From NCBI RefSeq assembly GCF_000948985.2, contig NZ_CP059733.1:5642001-5706000 (forward strand): DNA of 64,000 nucleotides, written 5' to 3'. The translations under genes and the position numbers were made by a program. Shown piece by piece: positions 6,312 to 15,401 of the stretch. This DNA comes from Thalassomonas viridans (lineage in GTDB: Bacteria; Pseudomonadota; Gammaproteobacteria; Enterobacterales; Alteromonadaceae). Numbering within the stretch: the first letter of the stretch is position 1; each line of letters opens with the position of its first letter. The notes beneath the pieces were generated by a model, which was not told where the DNA came from, did no database searches, and saw only the letters and a list, made by a program, of their open reading frames with translations.

Positions 6312-7205
6312 ATGGAACTTAGCTCACTATCTTTTTCTCAGCGTCAACGCTTGGCCTTTATCGATTTTTGCTTGCAATACTTCGGGCAAATTGCCCGCGG
6401 TGATTTGATCCAACATTTCAGCACAGGTTTGGCGTCTGGTTCACGGGATTTCACCCTTTATAAAGAACTTGCCCCAAACAATTTACAATTGCGCCATCAA
6501 ACTAAACTTTATTATCGCACCGAACCCTTTACGCCTTTATTTAACCACGACCCTGAAGAAGCTTTATCACGTTTATGCAACGGTTTTGGCGATGGCTTTA
6601 CCGCTCCGAAACGACCCAGTGATATATGTTTTGACGCCATTCGTTTAATTCATCCCAAAGCCGAAATAGTGGCGACATTGATGCGGGCTATCGGGCAACA
6701 ACAAGTGATAAGCTGTGAATATGTATCGTTAAGCTCAGGTATTTCACAACGTGAATTAGTACCGCATAGCTTGGTTAATAGCGGTCATCGTTGGCATGTT
6801 CGGGCGTTTGACCGTAAGTCTTCGAGTTTTCGAGATTTTGTTTGCACCCGATTTATCCGTGCAGCTATCGCCGGCAACGCCACAGAAAATGCAGAACTTC
6901 GGGAAGCAGACCTGTCGTGGCAGAATATTCTCTCCTTAACCTTAACTCCCCACCCTAAATTAATGAATCCATTAGCCATTGAACTCGATTACAACATGAC
7001 CGATAGCAAATTAACCATCCAAACCCGAGCGGCTATTGCCGGTTATTTGTTGCAGGAATGGAATGTTGATTGTTCGCACAGCAGCCAGCTAAATGAAAAG
7101 CAATATCCTTTAAGGCTCGAAAACACAGAGGTATTGCAACAAATAGAGAATAGCCTGTTAGCACCGGGCTTTACTCTTTCTACCGTTAAGGGACCAAGCG
7201 CATGA
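6312..7205 (+). CDS. BrxR/CapW-like WYL-domain transcriptional regulator
   Basis: A 297-residue protein. The N-terminal winged-helix region (LSFSQRQRLAFIDFCLQYFG, then QIARGDLIQHF and KELAPNNLQLRH) resembles the BrxR/CapW repressors that control BREX, CBASS and other defence loci. A WYL domain follows at about 115-185 (YVSLSSGISQRELVPHSLVN then HRWHVRAFD), then a C-terminal WCX-like part. BrxR-type proteins are dimeric DNA-binding repressors thought to sense a ligand through WYL. Its TGA overlaps the jetA ATG by four bases, so it is the first gene of the Wadjet operon and probably autoregulates it. Confidence 0.85.
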   Translation: MELSSLSFSQRQRLAFIDFCLQYFGQIARGDLIQHFSTGLASGSRDFTLYKELAPNNLQLRHQTKLYYRTEPFTPLFNHDPEEALSRLCNGFGDGFTAPKRPSDICFDAIRLIHPKAEIVATLMRAIGQQQVISCEYVSLSSGISQRELVPHSLVNSGHRWHVRAFDRKSSSFRDFVCTRFIRAAIAGNATENAELREADLSWQNILSLTLTPHPKLMNPLAIELDYNMTDSKLTIQTRAAIAGYLLQEWNVDCSHSSQLNEKQYPLRLENTEVLQQIENSLLAPGFTLSTVKGPSA

Positions 7206-8758
7206 GCAGCTTTACTCTCGAATTTTTGGAACAACTTAAAGAACAAAGTGTCGCCTTGAAGTTATTGCGTTCGCCGCACTTCCCCTTGCTTGGCAGCTTT
7301 TTTTACCGCGCATTTATTCGTAAGAACCGCCGAAGTGTCGCTTATCAGGAATTAATTGCCTTACTTGATCATTACCTGGCGGATATTAACGAAAGCTGCC
7401 AAGACAAAAACGGTGCTAACAAATACCCTAAGTCAGCCAAAGCCTACATAGACGATTGGATCAGCATCAAAGGCGGTTTTTTACGTAAATACATGCCGCA
7501 GCAAGGCGACGAGCCAGAATGTGACTTATTGCCCGATGTTGAAAAAGCCTTACGCTGGGTAGAAGACCTGCAAGGAAAAAGTTTTGTTGGCACCGAGTCC
7601 CGGTTAAAGTTATTGCTCGGTTTAATTGCTGACCTGGTGCATGGCACCTCGGAAGATCAGCAAAGCAAACTGACAACTTTACGGCAGAAAAAACTTGAAA
7701 TAGAACAACAGATCCAAGCGGTAGAGCAAGGTATGGATATTGGCTACTCGGCCACCCAAGTGCGGGAAAAAATGTACCTGGTGGCCGATATGTCGCGGCA
7801 ATTATTAGGTGATTTTCGCCAGGTAGAAGCTAACTTTCGGGCGTTAGATAAAGACACCCGTAAAAAAATCACCCTCGGCGGCCACCAGAAAGGCCATGTG
7901 CTTGATACGGTCTTTAGCGATCAGGATGTTATCGACGGCTCCGACGAAGGCAAATCTTTCAGTGCTTTTTTTGAATTATTGATGCGCGGCGACATGCGCG
8001 AAAATATGCGTGACGATCTCAAGCAATTATTAGACTTAGAGTACAGTCGTGAATTTGCCTTAAATGATGAATTGTTAATGCATTTATACAGCTATTTGTT
8101 AGATGCCGGGGCAAAAGTGAATGTCACCAAACAGCAAATCACCGATCAGCTACGCCGTTATATTCAAGAGCAATCTCAAGACAATAAACGCATTTTAGCC
8201 TTAATCCGGGATTTCGAAGCGAGCGCTCATAAAATAGAAAGTGAAGCACTCAAACAGGAAAAAAACTTCACCGAATTGGACAGCTTTCAAGCACAAATCT
8301 CTCAACTGTTTAGCCGCAATTTATATCAGGCAAAGCAGCAAGAGTCGTTAGACTCTGACATTGGACAACAAGATGAAACACCAGATGTCGATTTAAGCCG
8401 TTTGTTTGAAGTCAGCCATATTGATGAATTTGCGCTGCAACGGCAGATCAGCCAGTGTTTACAGCAAAATCAAGGGCAAGTCACACTTGCCCAAGTGATC
8501 GAAAAATTCCCTGTTCAATATGGACTGGACGAAGTGCTTACATACGTAAAAATGGCTTGTGAGCAAACCGTTAGCGCCAATATTAACGAACAGGAGCAAC
8601 AAACGATTTCGTGGGAAATAGCTGAGCCGGACAGTTCCTCCCCTGTCCCTGTAAACATTCCCGCGACAAGCACAGCCGCTATTGGCAAAACCCGGCCTAG
8701 CAAAACCCGGCGCGTTTTAAAACTTCCCACTATTACCTTTGTAAGAGAACTGTCATGA
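7202..8758 (+). CDS. jetA: Wadjet protein JetA (DUF3375)
   Basis: A 518-residue DUF3375 protein, the kleisin-like subunit of a type I Wadjet complex. Family features are clear: SPHFPLLGSFFYRAF near residue 25, KSAKAYIDDWISIKGGFLRKY near 85, DVEKALRWVEDLQGKSFVGTESR near 115, and a coiled-coil segment near 155-175. Wadjet is an SMC-type complex that recognises and cleaves circular plasmid DNA. The Ser/Pro/Thr-rich tail (about 480-510) is typical of a flexible end. The gene overlaps both neighbours by four bases, indicating translational coupling. Confidence 0.93.
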   Translation: MSSFTLEFLEQLKEQSVALKLLRSPHFPLLGSFFYRAFIRKNRRSVAYQELIALLDHYLADINESCQDKNGANKYPKSAKAYIDDWISIKGGFLRKYMPQQGDEPECDLLPDVEKALRWVEDLQGKSFVGTESRLKLLLGLIADLVHGTSEDQQSKLTTLRQKKLEIEQQIQAVEQGMDIGYSATQVREKMYLVADMSRQLLGDFRQVEANFRALDKDTRKKITLGGHQKGHVLDTVFSDQDVIDGSDEGKSFSAFFELLMRGDMRENMRDDLKQLLDLEYSREFALNDELLMHLYSYLLDAGAKVNVTKQQITDQLRRYIQEQSQDNKRILALIRDFEASAHKIESEALKQEKNFTELDSFQAQISQLFSRNLYQAKQQESLDSDIGQQDETPDVDLSRLFEVSHIDEFALQRQISQCLQQNQGQVTLAQVIEKFPVQYGLDEVLTYVKMACEQTVSANINEQEQQTISWEIAEPDSSSPVPVNIPATSTAAIGKTRPSKTRRVLKLPTITFVRELS

Positions 8759-9378
8759 TGACCGACCCCAACGAAATAAAAACGAACCTGACGGCTAAAC
8801 AGCAGCAAGAAAAGTCGGCGGTGCAGATCAAACTACTCAAAGGCCCAGTTTATCGCGCCAAACATAAAGACCTATGGCTATGGTTAGAGCGGGATCTATT
8901 TCAAATTCGTGAATATTTTCAGCAAATAGGTTTGTCGTTACTGCTCGACGACGCCGAGGGTTACGCTTTTTTAAAACAACAAAGCCTTGATGAGGCGAAC
9001 GAGGGCGAACAGGACATTCCACGCTTGATCACCCGCCGTAGCCTGTCATTTTCTCAAACGCTGTTAATGGTATTATTACGCAAACGTTTGGCCGAACACG
9101 ACAGCGAAGACAGCTCGCCACGGTTAATTGTCGAGCGGCACGACATGCATCAGTGGCTGACGGGTTTTTACCCTGTGGTTAGCAATGAAGTGAAACAAAA
9201 AAAGGAGTTTGATGCCTTGATCAAAAAGATCGCCGAAATGGGCTTTTTAAGCCAGCTGCCAAATCATCAGGACGAATTTGAAGTACAACGCATACTCAAA
9301 GCCGTGATCAACGCCGAACAAATCAGCGAGCTAATCGACATGCTCGCAAGCCAGCATAACCAGGAGGAGCAGGCATAA
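8755..9378 (+). CDS. jetB: Wadjet protein JetB (DUF4194)
   Basis: A 207-residue protein of the DUF4194 family, the KITE-like winged-helix subunit (MukE counterpart) that bridges JetA and JetC. Recognisable parts are LLKGPVYRAKHKDLWLWLER at about 24-43, FQQIGLSLLLDDAEGYAFL at 52-70, and RSLSFSQTLLMVLLRKRL near 95. Two tandem ATGs (8755 and 8758) could both serve as start. Its stop overlaps the jetC ATG by one base, and a strong AGGAGGAG just inside its end is the jetC ribosome binding site. Confidence 0.92.
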   Translation: MMTDPNEIKTNLTAKQQQEKSAVQIKLLKGPVYRAKHKDLWLWLERDLFQIREYFQQIGLSLLLDDAEGYAFLKQQSLDEANEGEQDIPRLITRRSLSFSQTLLMVLLRKRLAEHDSEDSSPRLIVERHDMHQWLTGFYPVVSNEVKQKKEFDALIKKIAEMGFLSQLPNHQDEFEVQRILKAVINAEQISELIDMLASQHNQEEQA

Positions 9379-12300
9379 TGTCAGCATTAGCAGAAAGCCA
9401 TTTTAACAATGAAGACCATGGCTTGCATGGTTTTCGGTTACAAAACCTCTCGGTCTTAAATTGGGGCACCTTCGATCACAAAGTTTGGGAGTTAAGCCCC
9501 GAGTGCCAAAACAGCTTATTAACGGGAAACATAGGGAGCGGTAAATCGACTATGGTCGATGGGTTGACAAGCTTACTTGTGCCCACCCGAAAATTAGCTT
9601 TTAATAAAGCGGCCGGGGCTGAAGATAAAGAGCGTTCATTAGAGTCTTATTTTCATGGTTATTACACCTCACAGCAAGACGAATTCGGCAAAGCCCGCTC
9701 TATTGGTTTACGCAAAGACAAGCATTATTCGGTGGTATTGGCACAGTTTCGCAGCGGTGCCCTTAAGCAGTCAATTACCTTAGCTCAGGTATTCTGGTTA
9801 AAACCCGGCGAGAAAAAAGTAAAACGCCTGTTTGTCGTCGCGCAAACGGCATTGACCATTACCGAGCATTTCAGCAACTTTGGCAGCCAAATCAACCAGC
9901 TTAAAAAACAATTGCGCAAAAATGAACAGCTCGAATTATTCGACACTTTTCCCCCTTACGCGCAATGTTTTAGCAAGTTATTAGGCTTGGGCGCCGACGG
10001 CAAGGCCCTGGAGTTATTTAACCAAACGATTTCGATGAAATCCGTTGGCTCAGTCACCGACTTTGTCCGTCAAAACATGCTGGAGCAGCCCGATGTCGAA
10101 GCACAGCTGCAAGAATTAGAACGCAATTACGATGACCTGAAACGCTTGCACGATGCGGTAGTAGATGCCCGTCAAAAAGTCGAGTTACTGACCCCTGTTG
10201 ATGACTATGGCAAGCAAGCACTGCTTGCTGCAAACGACAAAACCCACATCGAACAATGCCGGGAGTTAACCGAACCTTATATGGCAAAGTTAGCCATTGA
10301 TTTATATCAAACCCGTTTGCATAAACGCCGGCAAGCATTGCAAAAACTAAACATTAAACTCGCTGCTTTTGAGCATGAAAAAACGCAATTAGACGAAAAC
10401 CTCAATCAGTTACGGGAAGACATACGCAGCAACGGCGGCGGTCGCCTGCAACAGCTGGAAAAAGATATCCGCCAGCTGGCTGACAATCGCGAAAGTAGCC
10501 GTAAACTCTGTAATAACTATCAAAAGCTGGTCGGCGAATTAGGCTTGCCTGCCCAGTTGAGCAGCGATGCCTTTGTGCATAATATTAACGCCGCGAAAGA
10601 TCAGGTAGAAGAGTTTCAGCAACAACGGGAAGCGATAGACGAGCAGCAATTTACCCTGAAACAAGAACAGGCCGAGCAACAAAGCCGGCAAAAGGAACTC
10701 ACCGAGCTGCTAACATCGCTTAAACAGCGTAAGTCTAATATCAGCCTCAAACAAATACATATTCGAGAACATTTATGCGAACACTTGGGGGTAAGCGAAG
10801 ACCGTCTCCCCTTTGTCGGCGAGCTAATACAGGTAAAGGCCAGCGCGGCGTTATGGCAGGGAGCAATAGAGCGGGTACTGCATAATTTTGCCCTCAGTTT
10901 GATGGTGCCGGACGATTTATATCAAGACGTTTGTGACTTTGTTGAAAACACGCACCTGGGCACGCGACTGGTGTACTACCGCATTCGTCAACCGCAAAAC
11001 TACTACCCGGCTGCCAGTGAAAGCCATTCATTGCTGGCAAAAATAGAAATAAAGCCCGACAGCGAACATTACGACTGGTTAGATCAAGAGCTGCATAAGC
11101 GCTTTGACTACGCTTGTTGCGACGACATGGCGGAGTTTCGTCGCAGCGTTAAGGCAATCACGCCCAAAGGGCAAATAAAATCAGGCCAGTTCCGCCACGA
11201 AAAAGACGACAGGAACAAGTTGCAGGACAAAAGCCGTTATGTTTTGGGCTGGAGCAATAAAGATAAAATTCAACTACTTGCTGCACAATACAATCAGCTA
11301 GAGCAAAAAATCGCTCAGTTGCAAGCACAGCTAAATCAAGTGAAATCCCGGCAGCAACAAGTAGACAACAAAGCCAGGCAGGCACTGAATTTAGCCGACT
11401 TTAACTTTAGTTTTGAACAAATAAACTGGTCAAGATACAGCGAACAAATAGCGCAACTGCAGCAGGAAAAACAACAATTAGAACAAACCTCCGATGTATT
11501 AAAAGATCTACAAGTTAAATTGGCCGCTCAAGTAGCAGCGCAAGCGGCAATAGAGAATAAGCTCAAGCAAAGTTATGTTGAACGGGGACAGCATCAATCA
11601 GATATTGAAAAGGATGAAAGCGCATTAACTCAGGCGCAAAAAGAATATCAAAGCGCAGCGCCGGCATTTGTTAACAAGTGTTTTCCAACCCTAGATGAAT
11701 TTTATCAAAAATACCTGGGTGATAGCCAGGTCCGCATCAATATGCTGGCAAATGTTACCAGCCAGTTACGCACTAAGCTCAATGAAAGAGTACAACATCT
11801 GGAAGAACGCCGCCGTAAAAAGCAAGGGCAAATGATTAACGCCATGAGCAGTTTCGCCCATGATTTTCCTAACGATGTGACCGAGCTGGATCGCAGCCCG
11901 GAAGCCTTACCTGAATATCAACAGATGCTGAAACAGCTGCAAGAAGAAGACTTGCCGCGCCACGAGCAACGTTTTAAAGAAATGCTCAATCGCGATACCA
12001 TACGCGCCATGGCGCTGTTTCGCAGCTACCTGGACAAACAGGAAGAAGAAATAGATGGCCGGATTCGTCTGATCAATCAGTCGTTACACGGCTTGGATTA
12101 TCAAAATGGCACCTACATCGAAATCGACAGCATCAACTCTGCTGACGTAGAAATAAGAGATTTCAAACAACGGCTAAAAAGCTGCGTAGAATTCAGCACC
12201 GACGACAGCCTGTACTCGGAAGAAAAATTCCAGCGGGTAAAAGACTTAATAGAACAAATGCGCAACGAGCCCAAATGGACACAAAAAGTTGTCGACGTAC

Positions 12301-12773
12301 GTTACTGGCACTTGTTCAATGTGATAGAGCGTTACCGGGAAGATAACAAAGAAAAAGAATGTTACTCCGATTCTGGCGGTAAATCCGGCGGCCAAAAAGA
12401 AAAGCTCGCTTATTCGATATTGGCTGCCGCCATCCTTTTACAATACGGACTGGTCAATAACGAGCAGCAACCAGAAATCAAAGCCAAGCGCCGCTTTAAC
12501 CTGGTGGTCATAGACGAAGCCTTCGCCAGGGGCTCAAAAGACAGCACCCGTTTTGGCCTGGAATTATTCAAAAAACTCGGCCTGCAATTGTTATTAGTGA
12601 CACCGCTGCAAAAACTCGATGTCATTGAACATTACGTAAAACATGTGCATTTTGTTGATCAAAAAAATAACCGCTCGATGCTGCTCAATATGACCATTGA
12701 CCAATATCGTGAACGTTTGGCGCAACATAAGAGTATTAGCAAATATGAAAATATGGTCAAACAAGTATCGTAA
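9378..12773 (+). CDS. jetC: Wadjet protein JetC (SMC-like ATPase)
   Basis: A 1131-residue SMC/MukB-like ATPase, the motor of Wadjet. Walker A GNIGSGKST is at residues 50-58. Two long Gln/Glu/Lys-rich coiled-coil arms (about 300-470 and 640-860) flank a hinge-like globular region (about 480-630, PFVGELIQVKASAALWQGAI). The signature is SGGKSGGQKEKLA near 1000, and Walker B is LVVIDEAFARGSKDST near 1040, where the E supports intact hydrolysis. No frameshift or lost motif is seen, so the motor looks functional. Confidence 0.95.
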   Translation: MSALAESHFNNEDHGLHGFRLQNLSVLNWGTFDHKVWELSPECQNSLLTGNIGSGKSTMVDGLTSLLVPTRKLAFNKAAGAEDKERSLESYFHGYYTSQQDEFGKARSIGLRKDKHYSVVLAQFRSGALKQSITLAQVFWLKPGEKKVKRLFVVAQTALTITEHFSNFGSQINQLKKQLRKNEQLELFDTFPPYAQCFSKLLGLGADGKALELFNQTISMKSVGSVTDFVRQNMLEQPDVEAQLQELERNYDDLKRLHDAVVDARQKVELLTPVDDYGKQALLAANDKTHIEQCRELTEPYMAKLAIDLYQTRLHKRRQALQKLNIKLAAFEHEKTQLDENLNQLREDIRSNGGGRLQQLEKDIRQLADNRESSRKLCNNYQKLVGELGLPAQLSSDAFVHNINAAKDQVEEFQQQREAIDEQQFTLKQEQAEQQSRQKELTELLTSLKQRKSNISLKQIHIREHLCEHLGVSEDRLPFVGELIQVKASAALWQGAIERVLHNFALSLMVPDDLYQDVCDFVENTHLGTRLVYYRIRQPQNYYPAASESHSLLAKIEIKPDSEHYDWLDQELHKRFDYACCDDMAEFRRSVKAITPKGQIKSGQFRHEKDDRNKLQDKSRYVLGWSNKDKIQLLAAQYNQLEQKIAQLQAQLNQVKSRQQQVDNKARQALNLADFNFSFEQINWSRYSEQIAQLQQEKQQLEQTSDVLKDLQVKLAAQVAAQAAIENKLKQSYVERGQHQSDIEKDESALTQAQKEYQSAAPAFVNKCFPTLDEFYQKYLGDSQVRINMLANVTSQLRTKLNERVQHLEERRRKKQGQMINAMSSFAHDFPNDVTELDRSPEALPEYQQMLKQLQEEDLPRHEQRFKEMLNRDTIRAMALFRSYLDKQEEEIDGRIRLINQSLHGLDYQNGTYIEIDSINSADVEIRDFKQRLKSCVEFSTDDSLYSEEKFQRVKDLIEQMRNEPKWTQKVVDVRYWHLFNVIERYREDNKEKECYSDSGGKSGGQKEKLAYSILAAAILLQYGLVNNEQQPEIKAKRRFNLVVIDEAFARGSKDSTRFGLELFKKLGLQLLLVTPLQKLDVIEHYVKHVHFVDQKNNRSMLLNMTIDQYRERLAQHKSISKYENMVKQVS

Positions 12774-12835
12774 GATGAAAAAAGAGTGCCCTGTTGAAAC
12801 ATATGGCCAATAAAAACTAACAAAAGAAAAACCAC

Positions 12836-13999
12836 ATGAGTGAATATCAATACTACGAATTTAGAGCCGTAGAGCAACAACTGACTAATCAGCAAAAAAC
12901 TGCGTTGCGGGAGATCTCCAGCCGGGCGCAGATCACATCGTCTTCCTTTGTCAATGAATATAGCTATGGTGATTTAAAAGCCGAAGAAACCGATTTAATG
13001 GCTGAGTATTTTGATCTGGGTTTTTATATCGCTAATTGGGGGGAAGTTCGCTTGTATATCAAGCTCCCCCGAAATTTAATTTCTGAACATATTTTACGTC
13101 AGTTCGAATGGGATGATGTGATCGAGCATGAAACAAGAAACGATCAGACCATCATCACCTTATCAATGCCTGAGCACGAAGAATATTTCGGTTATATTGA
13201 TGATGCCTATGAGCATTTAGATCAGCTCGGCGCCATTCGGGAAGAGCTCATCAATGGCGATTACCGCAGTTTACAAATCGCCTGGTTTGCCTTATTAAGC
13301 CTTAATGGCACGGATGAATTTGAAGAGATCCCACTATTTAAACAAGGAAACATTAACAGCGACTTCCATCAGCTGACGCCTGCTCAAAAATATTTAGCCG
13401 ATCTATTTCTAGTCAAACCGCAATGGCTAACCTTAATGCGTCAAAGAGCACCAGAGCATGCAAACGAAAAGACAAAGACAACCGCGACTCAAACAAATAA
13501 AGAAAACTGGATAACACAGCTGCCTAAATCTGAAAAAGACAACTTGCTGTTAATGTTACTGGCAGGCAAAGCCACTCAAGCGCAACACCAACTGCAAAAT
13601 CAATACAAAAAGAGTAACCGCCAGGCAGAGCCTCAAGTTTTACAGCTTTCAATAAATGAATTGCATCAAAGTTATCAAACGGCAAGTGAGGTTTATGCCC
13701 GGGAGCAACAGGCATTGGCAAAACAACAAGCCCGCATTGCCCAAAAAAAACATAATGACTATTTACACGACATCTACAAAAATGCATTCAGGTACTGGAA
13801 TTTAGCCACTTTTCACGCCGACAAAAAAACGGCTGGCGGTTATGATGAAGCGACAAGGCTATTTAACGACTTACACGATGCTTATCACCTTAATAACAAC
13901 CAGGTAAAGTTTCAAAAAAAATTCTCTGAGTTTATCGCTGCCAACTCAAACAAACCCTCGTTAATGAAAAGACTAAAACAACGGGGTTTATTAACTTAA
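12836..13999 (+). CDS. Extra Wadjet-operon protein of unknown function, 387 aa
   Basis: A 387-residue soluble protein between jetC and jetD, a position normally empty in type I Wadjet. The N-terminal 120 residues (YYEFRAVEQQLTNQQK, SFVNEYSYGDLKAEE, DLGFYIANWGEVRLYIKLPR) resemble a family of uncharacterised bacterial proteins that I recall only as hypothetical. The middle has LTPAQKYLADLFLVKPQWL. The region from about 275 to 320 is Gln/Lys-rich and probably coiled coil. No nuclease, Toprim, ATPase or HTH motif is visible. It begins 62 bp after jetC with a weak ribosome binding site and overlaps the jetD start by one base, so it is translated with jetD. A role as accessory or regulatory subunit is inferred from position only. 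Confidence 0.85.
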   Translation: MSEYQYYEFRAVEQQLTNQQKTALREISSRAQITSSSFVNEYSYGDLKAEETDLMAEYFDLGFYIANWGEVRLYIKLPRNLISEHILRQFEWDDVIEHETRNDQTIITLSMPEHEEYFGYIDDAYEHLDQLGAIREELINGDYRSLQIAWFALLSLNGTDEFEEIPLFKQGNINSDFHQLTPAQKYLADLFLVKPQWLTLMRQRAPEHANEKTKTTATQTNKENWITQLPKSEKDNLLLMLLAGKATQAQHQLQNQYKKSNRQAEPQVLQLSINELHQSYQTASEVYAREQQALAKQQARIAQKKHNDYLHDIYKNAFRYWNLATFHADKKTAGGYDEATRLFNDLHDAYHLNNNQVKFQKKFSEFIAANSNKPSLMKRLKQRGLLT

Positions 14000-15198
14000 T
14001 GACTAAATTAACCACCAGCGCAACAATAAAAGCCAAGCTGCAAAACCAATGGTCGCAGTTTAAATTTCATAAGCAGTGGGCGAATAAGCAGCTTAAATTT
14101 CCCTTAATACTCAAATTGGCTAAGCCTACCGATAAACAGCTCTTGCATGAATATTCGCAGGTGCAGGTTTGGCTGGACGACCTGCAAAAACTCTCCCTGA
14201 TAAAAGGCGTGGCTTTACGCAAGCAGCAGATTAATTACAGCAAAATGGGCAAGCAGTTAATGCCTGTTGCGATTGAAATCGCCGATATGGAAGCCTTAGC
14301 CCGTTACCTTAATAAGTGGCAGCAATGGCAAAAGTTTACCCAACTCTTTGCACACATTTGTCAGCAGCTGCCACGAATAGCCGACTGGTTAGCCCAAAAC
14401 CCTGCCCAAATAGAAAAATACCAAAGCAGTTGGCCACAGCTGATCAATGTTTGTTTGTACTTTATCAAACACCCAAGCCCCAATTGTTATATTCGTCAGC
14501 TGGATATTCCAAACGTCGATACCAAGTTTATTGAGCAACATAAAGCTATTCTTAAGCAATTGCTCGATCAATTGTTAGATCTTAACGGCATAGATCAACA
14601 ATATAACAAATTAACCGAACATGGCTTTGAAAAGCGTTTTGGTTTATTGCATGAACAACCGCAAATTCGCTTTCGGGTTTTAGACCCTCAACTTAGCCAA
14701 GAGCTTTTGGGAATAAATGATCTAACCATTCCCATAGAACAATTCAACCGACTCAATTTAATGGTTGATCGAGTATTCATCACAGAAAACAAAGTGAATG
14801 GCTTGGCTTTTCCGGCAATAAACAACGCTATCGTCATCTTTGGCTTAGGCTATGGAATACAAATATTAAAACAAACTGATTGGTTAAAAAAATGCCGGAT
14901 ACATTATTGGGGGGATATCGACACTCATGGCTTTGCCATACTGTCCCAACTGAGAAGTTACTTCCCCAAAACCCAATCCTTGTTAATGGATCAACAAACA
15001 TTGCTAGCCTGTAAAACATTCTGGGGTTGTGAAGTAAAACATCAATGCCACAAGGCAGAACAGTTGCCACACCTGACCGATGAAGAGCAAACCCTCTATC
15101 AACAGCTAAAACAAGGCAAATGGGCAGAACAATTGCGTTTAGAGCAAGAGATAATTCCTATATCGATATTATTGGAAGGTTTGAGCAAGTTTAAATAA
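13999..15198 (+). CDS. jetD: Wadjet nuclease JetD (DUF3322/DUF2220, Toprim-like)
   Basis: A 399-residue protein: N-terminal DUF3322-type region (about 1-190) and C-terminal DUF2220 Toprim-like domain. The Toprim acidic residues are visible: the Glu in ITENKVNGLAFP near 262 and the DxD in YWGDIDTHGFAIL near 305. The conserved tail LTDEEQTLYQQLKQGKW and RLEQEIIP is present. JetD is the metal-dependent nuclease that cuts the plasmid after the SMC motor has extruded it. All active-site motifs are intact. It is the last gene of the operon and faces groEL across a shared terminator. Confidence 0.93.
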   Translation: MTKLTTSATIKAKLQNQWSQFKFHKQWANKQLKFPLILKLAKPTDKQLLHEYSQVQVWLDDLQKLSLIKGVALRKQQINYSKMGKQLMPVAIEIADMEALARYLNKWQQWQKFTQLFAHICQQLPRIADWLAQNPAQIEKYQSSWPQLINVCLYFIKHPSPNCYIRQLDIPNVDTKFIEQHKAILKQLLDQLLDLNGIDQQYNKLTEHGFEKRFGLLHEQPQIRFRVLDPQLSQELLGINDLTIPIEQFNRLNLMVDRVFITENKVNGLAFPAINNAIVIFGLGYGIQILKQTDWLKKCRIHYWGDIDTHGFAILSQLRSYFPKTQSLLMDQQTLLACKTFWGCEVKHQCHKAEQLPHLTDEEQTLYQQLKQGKWAEQLRLEQEIIPISILLEGLSKFK

Positions 15199-15369
15199 GT
15201 TTTGTACATCCATAGAGATAACCGGTTTGGTACGATTTAAATACCCTATCGCCGCTAACGATAGGCATATACCCTTTCAATCGGTCCATTCGTTTCATAA
15301 GAGGTTTTGTTTTTTTTACCCCACTTTATACCCTTAGAATTTTCCGGTAATTTACGATACAAGAAAAGA

Positions 15370-15401
15370 AAAAGCCCGAATATCAAGGTATTCGGGCTTT
15401 T
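15370..15401. terminator. Bidirectional terminator between jetD and groEL
   Basis: A 13-bp perfect stem AAAAGCCCGAATA / TATTCGGGCTTTT with a 6-nt loop. The A and T runs in the stem ends provide a U tract in both directions, so it can terminate the plus-strand defence operon and the minus-strand groESL operon. Confidence 0.9.

What the first reader, a model, noticed from the sequence alone, without database searches (positions are those of the whole stretch)
12836..13999. An extra 387-residue gene sits between jetC and jetD
Type I Wadjet operons normally run jetA-B-C-D. Here an unrecognised protein is inserted, with its stop overlapping the jetD start, so it is in the operon. Its N-terminal family is seen in other bacteria as hypothetical. 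It may be an undescribed accessory or regulatory subunit of the plasmid-cleaving complex.
Basis: partly seen in the sequence, partly recalled or inferred. Interest (0 to 1): 0.75.

Follow-up and report, generated by a model that had tools for sequence, protein, structure and literature searches.

The report
Passenger gene inside a Wadjet operon
A bacterial plasmid-defence operon carries an intact extra gene between its motor and nuclease genes; the gene belongs to a large, unnamed protein family that mostly lives elsewhere, so it looks like a captured passenger with its own role rather than a standard part of the defence machine.

Summary
An intact 387-codon gene (X, 12836-13999) lies between jetC and jetD of a complete type I Wadjet operon; its stop shares one base with the jetD start (TAATG).

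X belongs to a large family (at least 549 relatives in one capped scan) with no Pfam, NCBIfam, PADLOC or PHROGs model, mostly not beside Wadjet. Of the 80 best relatives, 2 abut jetD and 1 lies 4.9 kb from it; 17 have a TOTE-type primase-helicase gene or a piece of one within 300 bp, 18 a TPR-like gene, 10 a SEC-C gene, and 33 none of the partners tested. Of 84 jetD loci fetched, only the window's has X. The four closest operons found (JetC 61-67% identical) lack it.

Other jetC-jetD junctions carry unrelated genes (a PIN gene; an MNT/HEPN pair), so this junction accepts passengers.

Best reading: a conflict-associated gene captured at a tolerant junction and co-expressed with JetD, probably with its own function. 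Placement beside jetD in three scattered lineages, twice overlapping it, keeps an optional Wadjet-accessory role open (about 0.2).

The parts
6312..7205 (+). WYL-domain protein gene, first gene of the operon (likely regulator, inferred)
   Evidence: Pfam WYL E 1.1e-11; overlaps jetA by 4 nt
7202..8758 (+). jetA (kleisin), 518 aa; about 24 aa longer near the C-terminus than the four closest relatives
   Evidence: PADLOC JetA1 E 5.6e-138; alignment A5
8755..9378 (+). jetB (KITE / MukE-like), 207 aa
   Evidence: PADLOC JetB1 E 1.9e-66
9378..12773 (+). jetC (SMC), 1131 aa; P-loop GNIGSGKST, SGGKSGGQKEK and FNLVVIDEAFARGS present (motif roles recalled)
   Evidence: PADLOC JetC1 E 0; the three stretches are invariant among 5 sequences in alignment A7
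12774..12835 (+). 62-nt spacer between jetC stop and X start; in the four closest operons jetC and jetD overlap or lie about 4 nt apart instead
12836..13999 (+). X: 387-aa passenger gene of an unnamed family (MSEYQYYEF... N-terminus)
12836..13261 (+). X residues 1-142: acidic alpha/beta domain, holds most of the family's conserved residues
   Evidence: models (mean pLDDT about 90); conservation and charge
13262..13780 (+). X residues 143-315: helical middle and long helix 273-315
   Evidence: model
13772..13996 (+). X C-terminal helical hairpin (about residues 313-387); a similar stretch ends some SWIM zinc-finger and DUF6880-type proteins
   Evidence: profile matches E 1e-5 to 1e-4 in three genomes, ORFs, Pfam of these
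13997..14001 (+). TAATG stop/start overlap between X and jetD, allowing translational coupling (inferred)
13999..15198 (+). jetD (Toprim nuclease), 399 aa; GDIDTHG and ITENK stretches present (catalytic role recalled)
   Evidence: PADLOC JetD1 E 1.5e-133; alignment A6

Best explanation
X is an autonomous, conflict-associated gene that inserted at the jetC/jetD boundary of an otherwise ordinary type I Wadjet operon. The boundary was kept in tight reading order, so X and JetD are co-transcribed and probably translationally coupled. X is most likely a scaffold or adaptor protein: a conserved acidic alpha/beta domain that binds a partner, plus a C-terminal TPR-like hairpin of the SWIM/DUF6880 kind. 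It works with, or beside, several different defence or stress modules (TOTE primase-helicase, SEC-C/HipA cassette, DUF6880, Wadjet) and alone. Shown: intact gene, operon position, family breadth, lack of obligate Wadjet linkage, absence in the closest operons found, scattered placement of jetD-adjacent copies on the tree, confident fold model. Probable: shared C-terminal module. Inferred: mobility, co-transcription and coupling, adaptor function, and that JetABCD does not need X.
For: Jet genes in the flanks of 3 of 80 loci. Partners within 300 bp, of 80 loci, by tblastn with one query each (two for HipA and DUF6880): TOTE AEP-helicase 17 (13 cover the primase part; 4 are pieces only), TPR-like 18, SEC-C 10, HipA 3, DUF6880 2, jetD 2, none of the tested ones 33. 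X in 1 of 84 jetD loci. The four closest operons found have jetC and jetD abutting without X. Other junction inserts: a PIN gene (L120) and an MNT plus HEPN pair (L207). Tree of 83: the window's X is a lone long branch (0.93), and the three jetD-adjacent rows against the other 80 need 3 changes, 3 on starred branches alone, no fewer than shuffled labels. No shared record between 25 X-bearing and 12 jetD-bearing plasmid records. C-terminal stretch shared with SWIM/DUF6880-type proteins.
Against: X abuts jetD also in L031 (about 90 nt after jetD) and L072 (4-nt overlap with the jetD end). From a jetD rate of 34 of 295 genomes and about 4000 genes per genome (my assumption), random adjacency would give roughly 0.005 of 80, so adjacency is not random, though defence islands were not controlled for. 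The one-base junction and retained conserved residues suggest X is under selection in the operon. On the tree, window and L072 share a 16-row clade, so one old Wadjet link with losses is not excluded. No insertion scar was found around X. The family function is untested and no known fold was matched significantly.
Confidence: 0.62

Rival explanations
1. X is an optional Wadjet accessory: it binds JetD (or JetABC) and tunes nuclease activation or protects the host's own circular DNA, recruited more than once into Wadjet operons.
For: jetD-adjacent X in three scattered rows (window, L072, L031), twice overlapping the jetD frame. The window's X has the most acidic N-domain of 83 relatives (-12.7 vs mean -6.7, sd 2.3 net charges per 100 residues), which could bind a DNA-binding surface (inferred).
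Against: 0 of 83 other jetD loci have X in the stretch held. The four closest operons lack it with JetD 52-56% and JetC 61-67% identical. Genome co-occurrence with JetD is not significant: 3 of 10 X genomes (one the window's own, one with only an X fragment) against 34 of 295, P 0.095, or 0.27 without the window's own genome. No insertion specific to the window was seen in JetD.
Confidence: 0.2
2. X is a neutral hitchhiker that landed at a tolerant junction and has no effect on Wadjet and no present function in this strain.
For: Junctions of other operons carry unrelated genes. The window's X branch is long (0.93) and it departs from the family at five positions that are at least 87% conserved.
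Against: Open frame, retained invariant residues in all parts, tight overlap with jetD and a confident model.
Confidence: 0.13
3. X is one half of a toxin-antitoxin-like module guarding the operon, like the MNT/HEPN pair seen at another jetC-jetD junction.
For: MNT/HEPN and PIN inserts at other junctions; X relatives lie in HTH-HipA cassettes.
Against: No partner gene at the window's insert: X fills the gap save for 62 nt. 33 of 80 relatives have none of the tested partners nearby. No significant toxin or antitoxin family match.
Confidence: 0.05

Closest known systems
Type I Wadjet (JetABCD)
   Same: Complete jetA-B-C-D set with PADLOC type I models, WYL gene upstream, ATPase and Toprim stretches present
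   Different: An unrelated 387-aa gene is inserted between jetC and jetD; its protein matches no PADLOC model
DUF6880 (PF21810) / SWIM zinc-finger proteins
   Same: The C-terminal hairpin of X (about residues 313-387) is matched in proteins that hit DUF6880 or SWIM; DUF6880 genes sit within 300 bp of X in 2 of 80 loci
   Different: X itself matches neither Pfam model; its N-terminal domain is different. Direct profile comparison with two DUF6880 proteins was not significant
TOTE conflict systems (TPR, OB, TBP, Effector; name from passages of PMC12458937), AEP-TOTE primase-helicase
   Same: A frequent partner of X relatives: 17 of 80 within 300 bp, 13 of them covering the primase part; Pfam AEP-TOTE E 2.5e-97 in the one scanned
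   Different: The window has no such gene beside X; the genome has one AEP-TOTE match, far away on the same contig
Toxin-antitoxin-like inserts in Wadjet operons (PIN; MNT/HEPN)
   Same: Also sit between jetC and jetD (L120, L207)
   Different: Unrelated by family match; X is a single larger gene without a partner

Membership tests
Type I Wadjet operon | jetA, jetB, jetC and jetD of type I present and in order | tested here: met
   PADLOC JetA1/B1/C1/D1
Type I Wadjet operon | jetC and jetD directly adjacent | tested here: not met
   62 nt plus X lie between them; estimated gap under 300 bp in 55 of 65 loci with both, the window being among the other 10
Wadjet subunit (X as a core Jet protein) | Regularly found with jet genes | tested here: not met
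   3 of 80 X loci have jet genes in the flank; 1 of 84 jetD loci has X
Wadjet subunit (X as a core Jet protein) | Physical or functional contact with JetA-D | not testable with these tools
   No complex prediction or assay available
DUF6880 (PF21810) | Match over Pfam's gathering score | tested here: not met
   No match for X; not among the families matched by any of 83 members at E 0.01
DUF6880/SWIM C-terminal module | Shared C-terminal hairpin | tested here: inconclusive
   Profile hits E 1e-5 to 1e-4 in 3 genomes but hhalign with two single DUF6880 sequences weak, E 0.067 and 0.08
TOTE conflict system | AEP-TOTE primase-helicase in the same operon | tested here: not met
   None among the operon's genes; the genome's only match is at C1:69985, the window lies at C1:5642001-5706000
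Type III secretion chaperone fold (N-domain) | Clear structural match | tested here: inconclusive
Known anti-phage defence protein | PADLOC model match | tested here: not met
   0 for X; 5 models matched by one or two of 76 members each, best E 0.001

The most novel reading that the evidence does not exclude
X represents an undescribed, widespread family of plug-in adaptor proteins that several conflict systems (TOTE, SEC-C/HipA, DUF6880, Wadjet) recruit independently, and in Wadjet operons it acts on JetD as an optional regulator or self-protection factor, produced in step with JetD through the stop/start overlap.
Probability: 0.18. Interest if true: 0.72.

Novelty: new variant of a known kind. 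Interest (0 to 1): 0.4.

Why it matters
If X only travels with defence operons, the case warns against reading operon position as subunit identity, and it points to a broad family without a model in the four libraries searched. If X does act on JetD, it would be an added control layer on a plasmid-cleaving SMC complex; [quoted passage not shown] Either way, jetC-jetD junctions that carry other genes (X, PIN, MNT/HEPN) are places to look for Wadjet add-ons.

Tried and rejected

Limits: the 80 genome loci are the best-scoring part of a capped list and not independent (for example two Bordetella ansorpii strains). L071 of that set and L020 of the order set appear to be the same contig (equal length). 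63 of 80 have at least 1.5 kb on both sides, so partner counts are lower bounds. The 84 jetD loci are those fetched (30 of 40 places, 30 of 44, 30 of 32, repeats counted once); weaker matches were not fetched, and some fetched ones are distant (E up to about 1e-14). They mostly hold about 1.5 kb of flank: 73 of 84 have at least 1 kb downstream and 76 of 84 at least 1 kb upstream. No paper on X was found: the family's first nine residues and 'DUF6880' gave 0 papers. Wadjet and TOTE searches were seen as listings only, and two papers as passages. The library is open-licence PMC only, and nothing about an extra jetC-jetD gene was looked for beyond these.

Full report
What is there. The window holds, on the + strand, a WYL gene (6312-7205), jetA (7202-8758), jetB (8755-9378), jetC (9378-12773), X (12836-13999) and jetD (13999-15198), then groEL and groES on the other strand (the two chaperonin names are recalled from the sequence). 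PADLOC gives JetA1, JetB1, JetC1 and JetD1 for the four jet genes and nothing for X. Pfam and NCBIfam give nothing significant for X. X begins 62 nt after the jetC stop and ends in TAATG, sharing one base with the jetD start. X and jetD have similar base composition (GC 0.408 and 0.405); jetC is higher (0.455) and the window is 0.468.

X is a real protein of a large family. Relatives align over nearly the whole length. They span Pseudomonadota, Thermodesulfobacteriota, Acidobacteriota, Myxococcota, Planctomycetota and Cyanobacteriota; plasmid hits add Streptomyces, Rhodococcus and Haliscomenobacter. In a sample of the window's order 10 of 295 genomes have a match, two of them broken fragments. 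In its class 11 of 369 have a profile match; 6 of those are X itself (one partial, one with stops) and the other 5 are short matches. None of the phage records has a match; one viral contig does. Pfam (83 members scanned), PADLOC, NCBIfam and PHROGs (76 members each) hold no model of the family; the few scattered hits are weak and match at most five members.

Architecture. AlphaFold2 with 76 sequences gives mean pLDDT 90.7 and pTM 0.82: an alpha/beta domain (1-142), a helical middle, a long helix (273-315) and a C-terminal helical hairpin. The first domain holds most invariant residues, for example S28, R30, Y42, D60 and R135. Fold searches found no significant relative for the whole or for the N-domain alone. 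The C-terminal hairpin is matched, E 1e-5 to 1e-4, in three other genomes inside longer proteins. Two of these hit DUF6880 in Pfam, one just over and one below its cut-off, and one hits SWIM. One of the DUF6880 ones has a Cys/His stretch at its truncated start that looks like a SWIM finger (recalled). A direct comparison with two DUF6880 proteins was weak, so the shared module is probable, not proven.

Is X tied to Wadjet? Mostly not. Of 80 genome loci, 3 have jet genes in the flank: L031 and L072, where X directly follows jetD, and L091, where jetD is 4.9 kb away and a TOTE helicase is 9 bp away. None of 9 further loci from the order, 7 plasmid regions and the viral contig has them. From the other side, three samples searched with the window's JetD (39 of 369 class genomes, 34 of 295 order genomes, 31 of 299 phylum genomes; the samples overlap) gave 84 fetched loci, and X is in one, the window. 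The four operons closest to the window's in these samples (JetC 61-67%, JetD 52-56% identical) have jetC and jetD overlapping or about 4 nt apart and no X. The three other genomes held for the genus have no JetC match. At genome level in the order sample, 3 of 10 X genomes also have a JetD match, against 34 of 295 (P 0.095; 0.27 without the window's genome; one of the three has only an X fragment). For AEP-TOTE it is 3 of 10 against 16 of 295 (P 0.0125; 0.07 without the window's genome). Among plasmids, the 25 X records and 12 JetD records share none.

What X does travel with. Within 300 bp of X, of 80 loci, by tblastn with chosen queries: TOTE AEP primase-helicase 17 (13 covering the primase part, 4 pieces only), a TPR-like 411-aa protein 18, a long SEC-C protein 10, HipA 3, DUF6880 2, jetD 2, an AAA/DUF4143-like gene on the other strand 6; 33 have none of these (the DUF4143 label is recalled). 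Acinetobacter plasmids carry an HTH-HipA-SEC-C-X cassette. Some copies seem to stand alone beside housekeeping genes, for example between glucan genes in Sinorhizobium (that collection's gene table is incomplete). This is the picture of a conflict-associated gene that moves between settings and can act alone.

Results that keep the accessory idea alive. Random adjacency to jetD should be near 0.005 in 80 (my estimate from a 34-of-295 jetD rate and an assumed 4000 genes per genome), so two cases plus the window are too many for chance, although clustering of defence genes was not controlled for. In L072 X overlaps the jetD end by 4 nt and is followed by a DUF6880 gene and a protein resembling the SEC-C partner; the same operon has a SEC-C gene with a sub-threshold HEAT match between jetB and jetC. 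On the tree of 83, the three jetD-adjacent rows need 3 changes against the other 80, 3 on starred branches alone; this can be three gains, or one gain with losses. Window and L072 share a 16-row clade whose other 14 rows are not jetD-adjacent; L031 lies far away. X stands before jetD in the window and after it in the other two, which argues for separate insertions (inferred). The window's X is on a lone long branch and has the most acidic N-domain of the 83.

The junction as a landing place. Ten of 65 loci had an estimated jetC-jetD distance of 300 bp or more in size, the window's among them; three of these values are negative, that is, not real gaps. I read the other six: L120 has a PIN gene on the opposite strand, L207 an MNT nucleotidyltransferase and a HEPN gene on the same strand, L116 two small ORFs without a Pfam match, and L109, L147 and L148 nothing convincing. 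L120 and L207 lie on short contigs of draft genomes, so misassembly is not excluded. So other genes seem to settle at this boundary too.

Conclusion. It is best explained as an autonomous, conflict-associated gene captured at a tolerant operon boundary (0.62), with an optional accessory role in Wadjet as the main rival (0.2). Mobility, coupling to jetD translation and adaptor function are inferences; the decisive tests are experimental.

Noticed in passing
   Followed up: partly
   Followed up: partly
L072:4419-5309 and 11162-15376 (Oceanospirillum beijerinckii): A Wadjet operon with a SEC-C gene between jetB and jetC, and X, a DUF6880 gene, a gene resembling the SEC-C partner and a coiled-coil gene after jetD.
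   Followed up: partly
window 8633-8704 (JetA residues about 478-501): A stretch of about 24 residues near the JetA C-terminus that the four closest relatives lack.
   Followed up: no
L033:11159-12391 and relatives: An unnamed 411-aa TPR-like protein, the commonest tested neighbour of X relatives (18 of 80 within 300 bp), with only sub-threshold TPR matches in Pfam.
   Followed up: no
own genome C1:69985-70671 (outside the window; L187): A single AEP-TOTE match far from the Wadjet operon, in an open frame of only 335 aa where most other matches in the order have about 780 aa or more.
   Followed up: no
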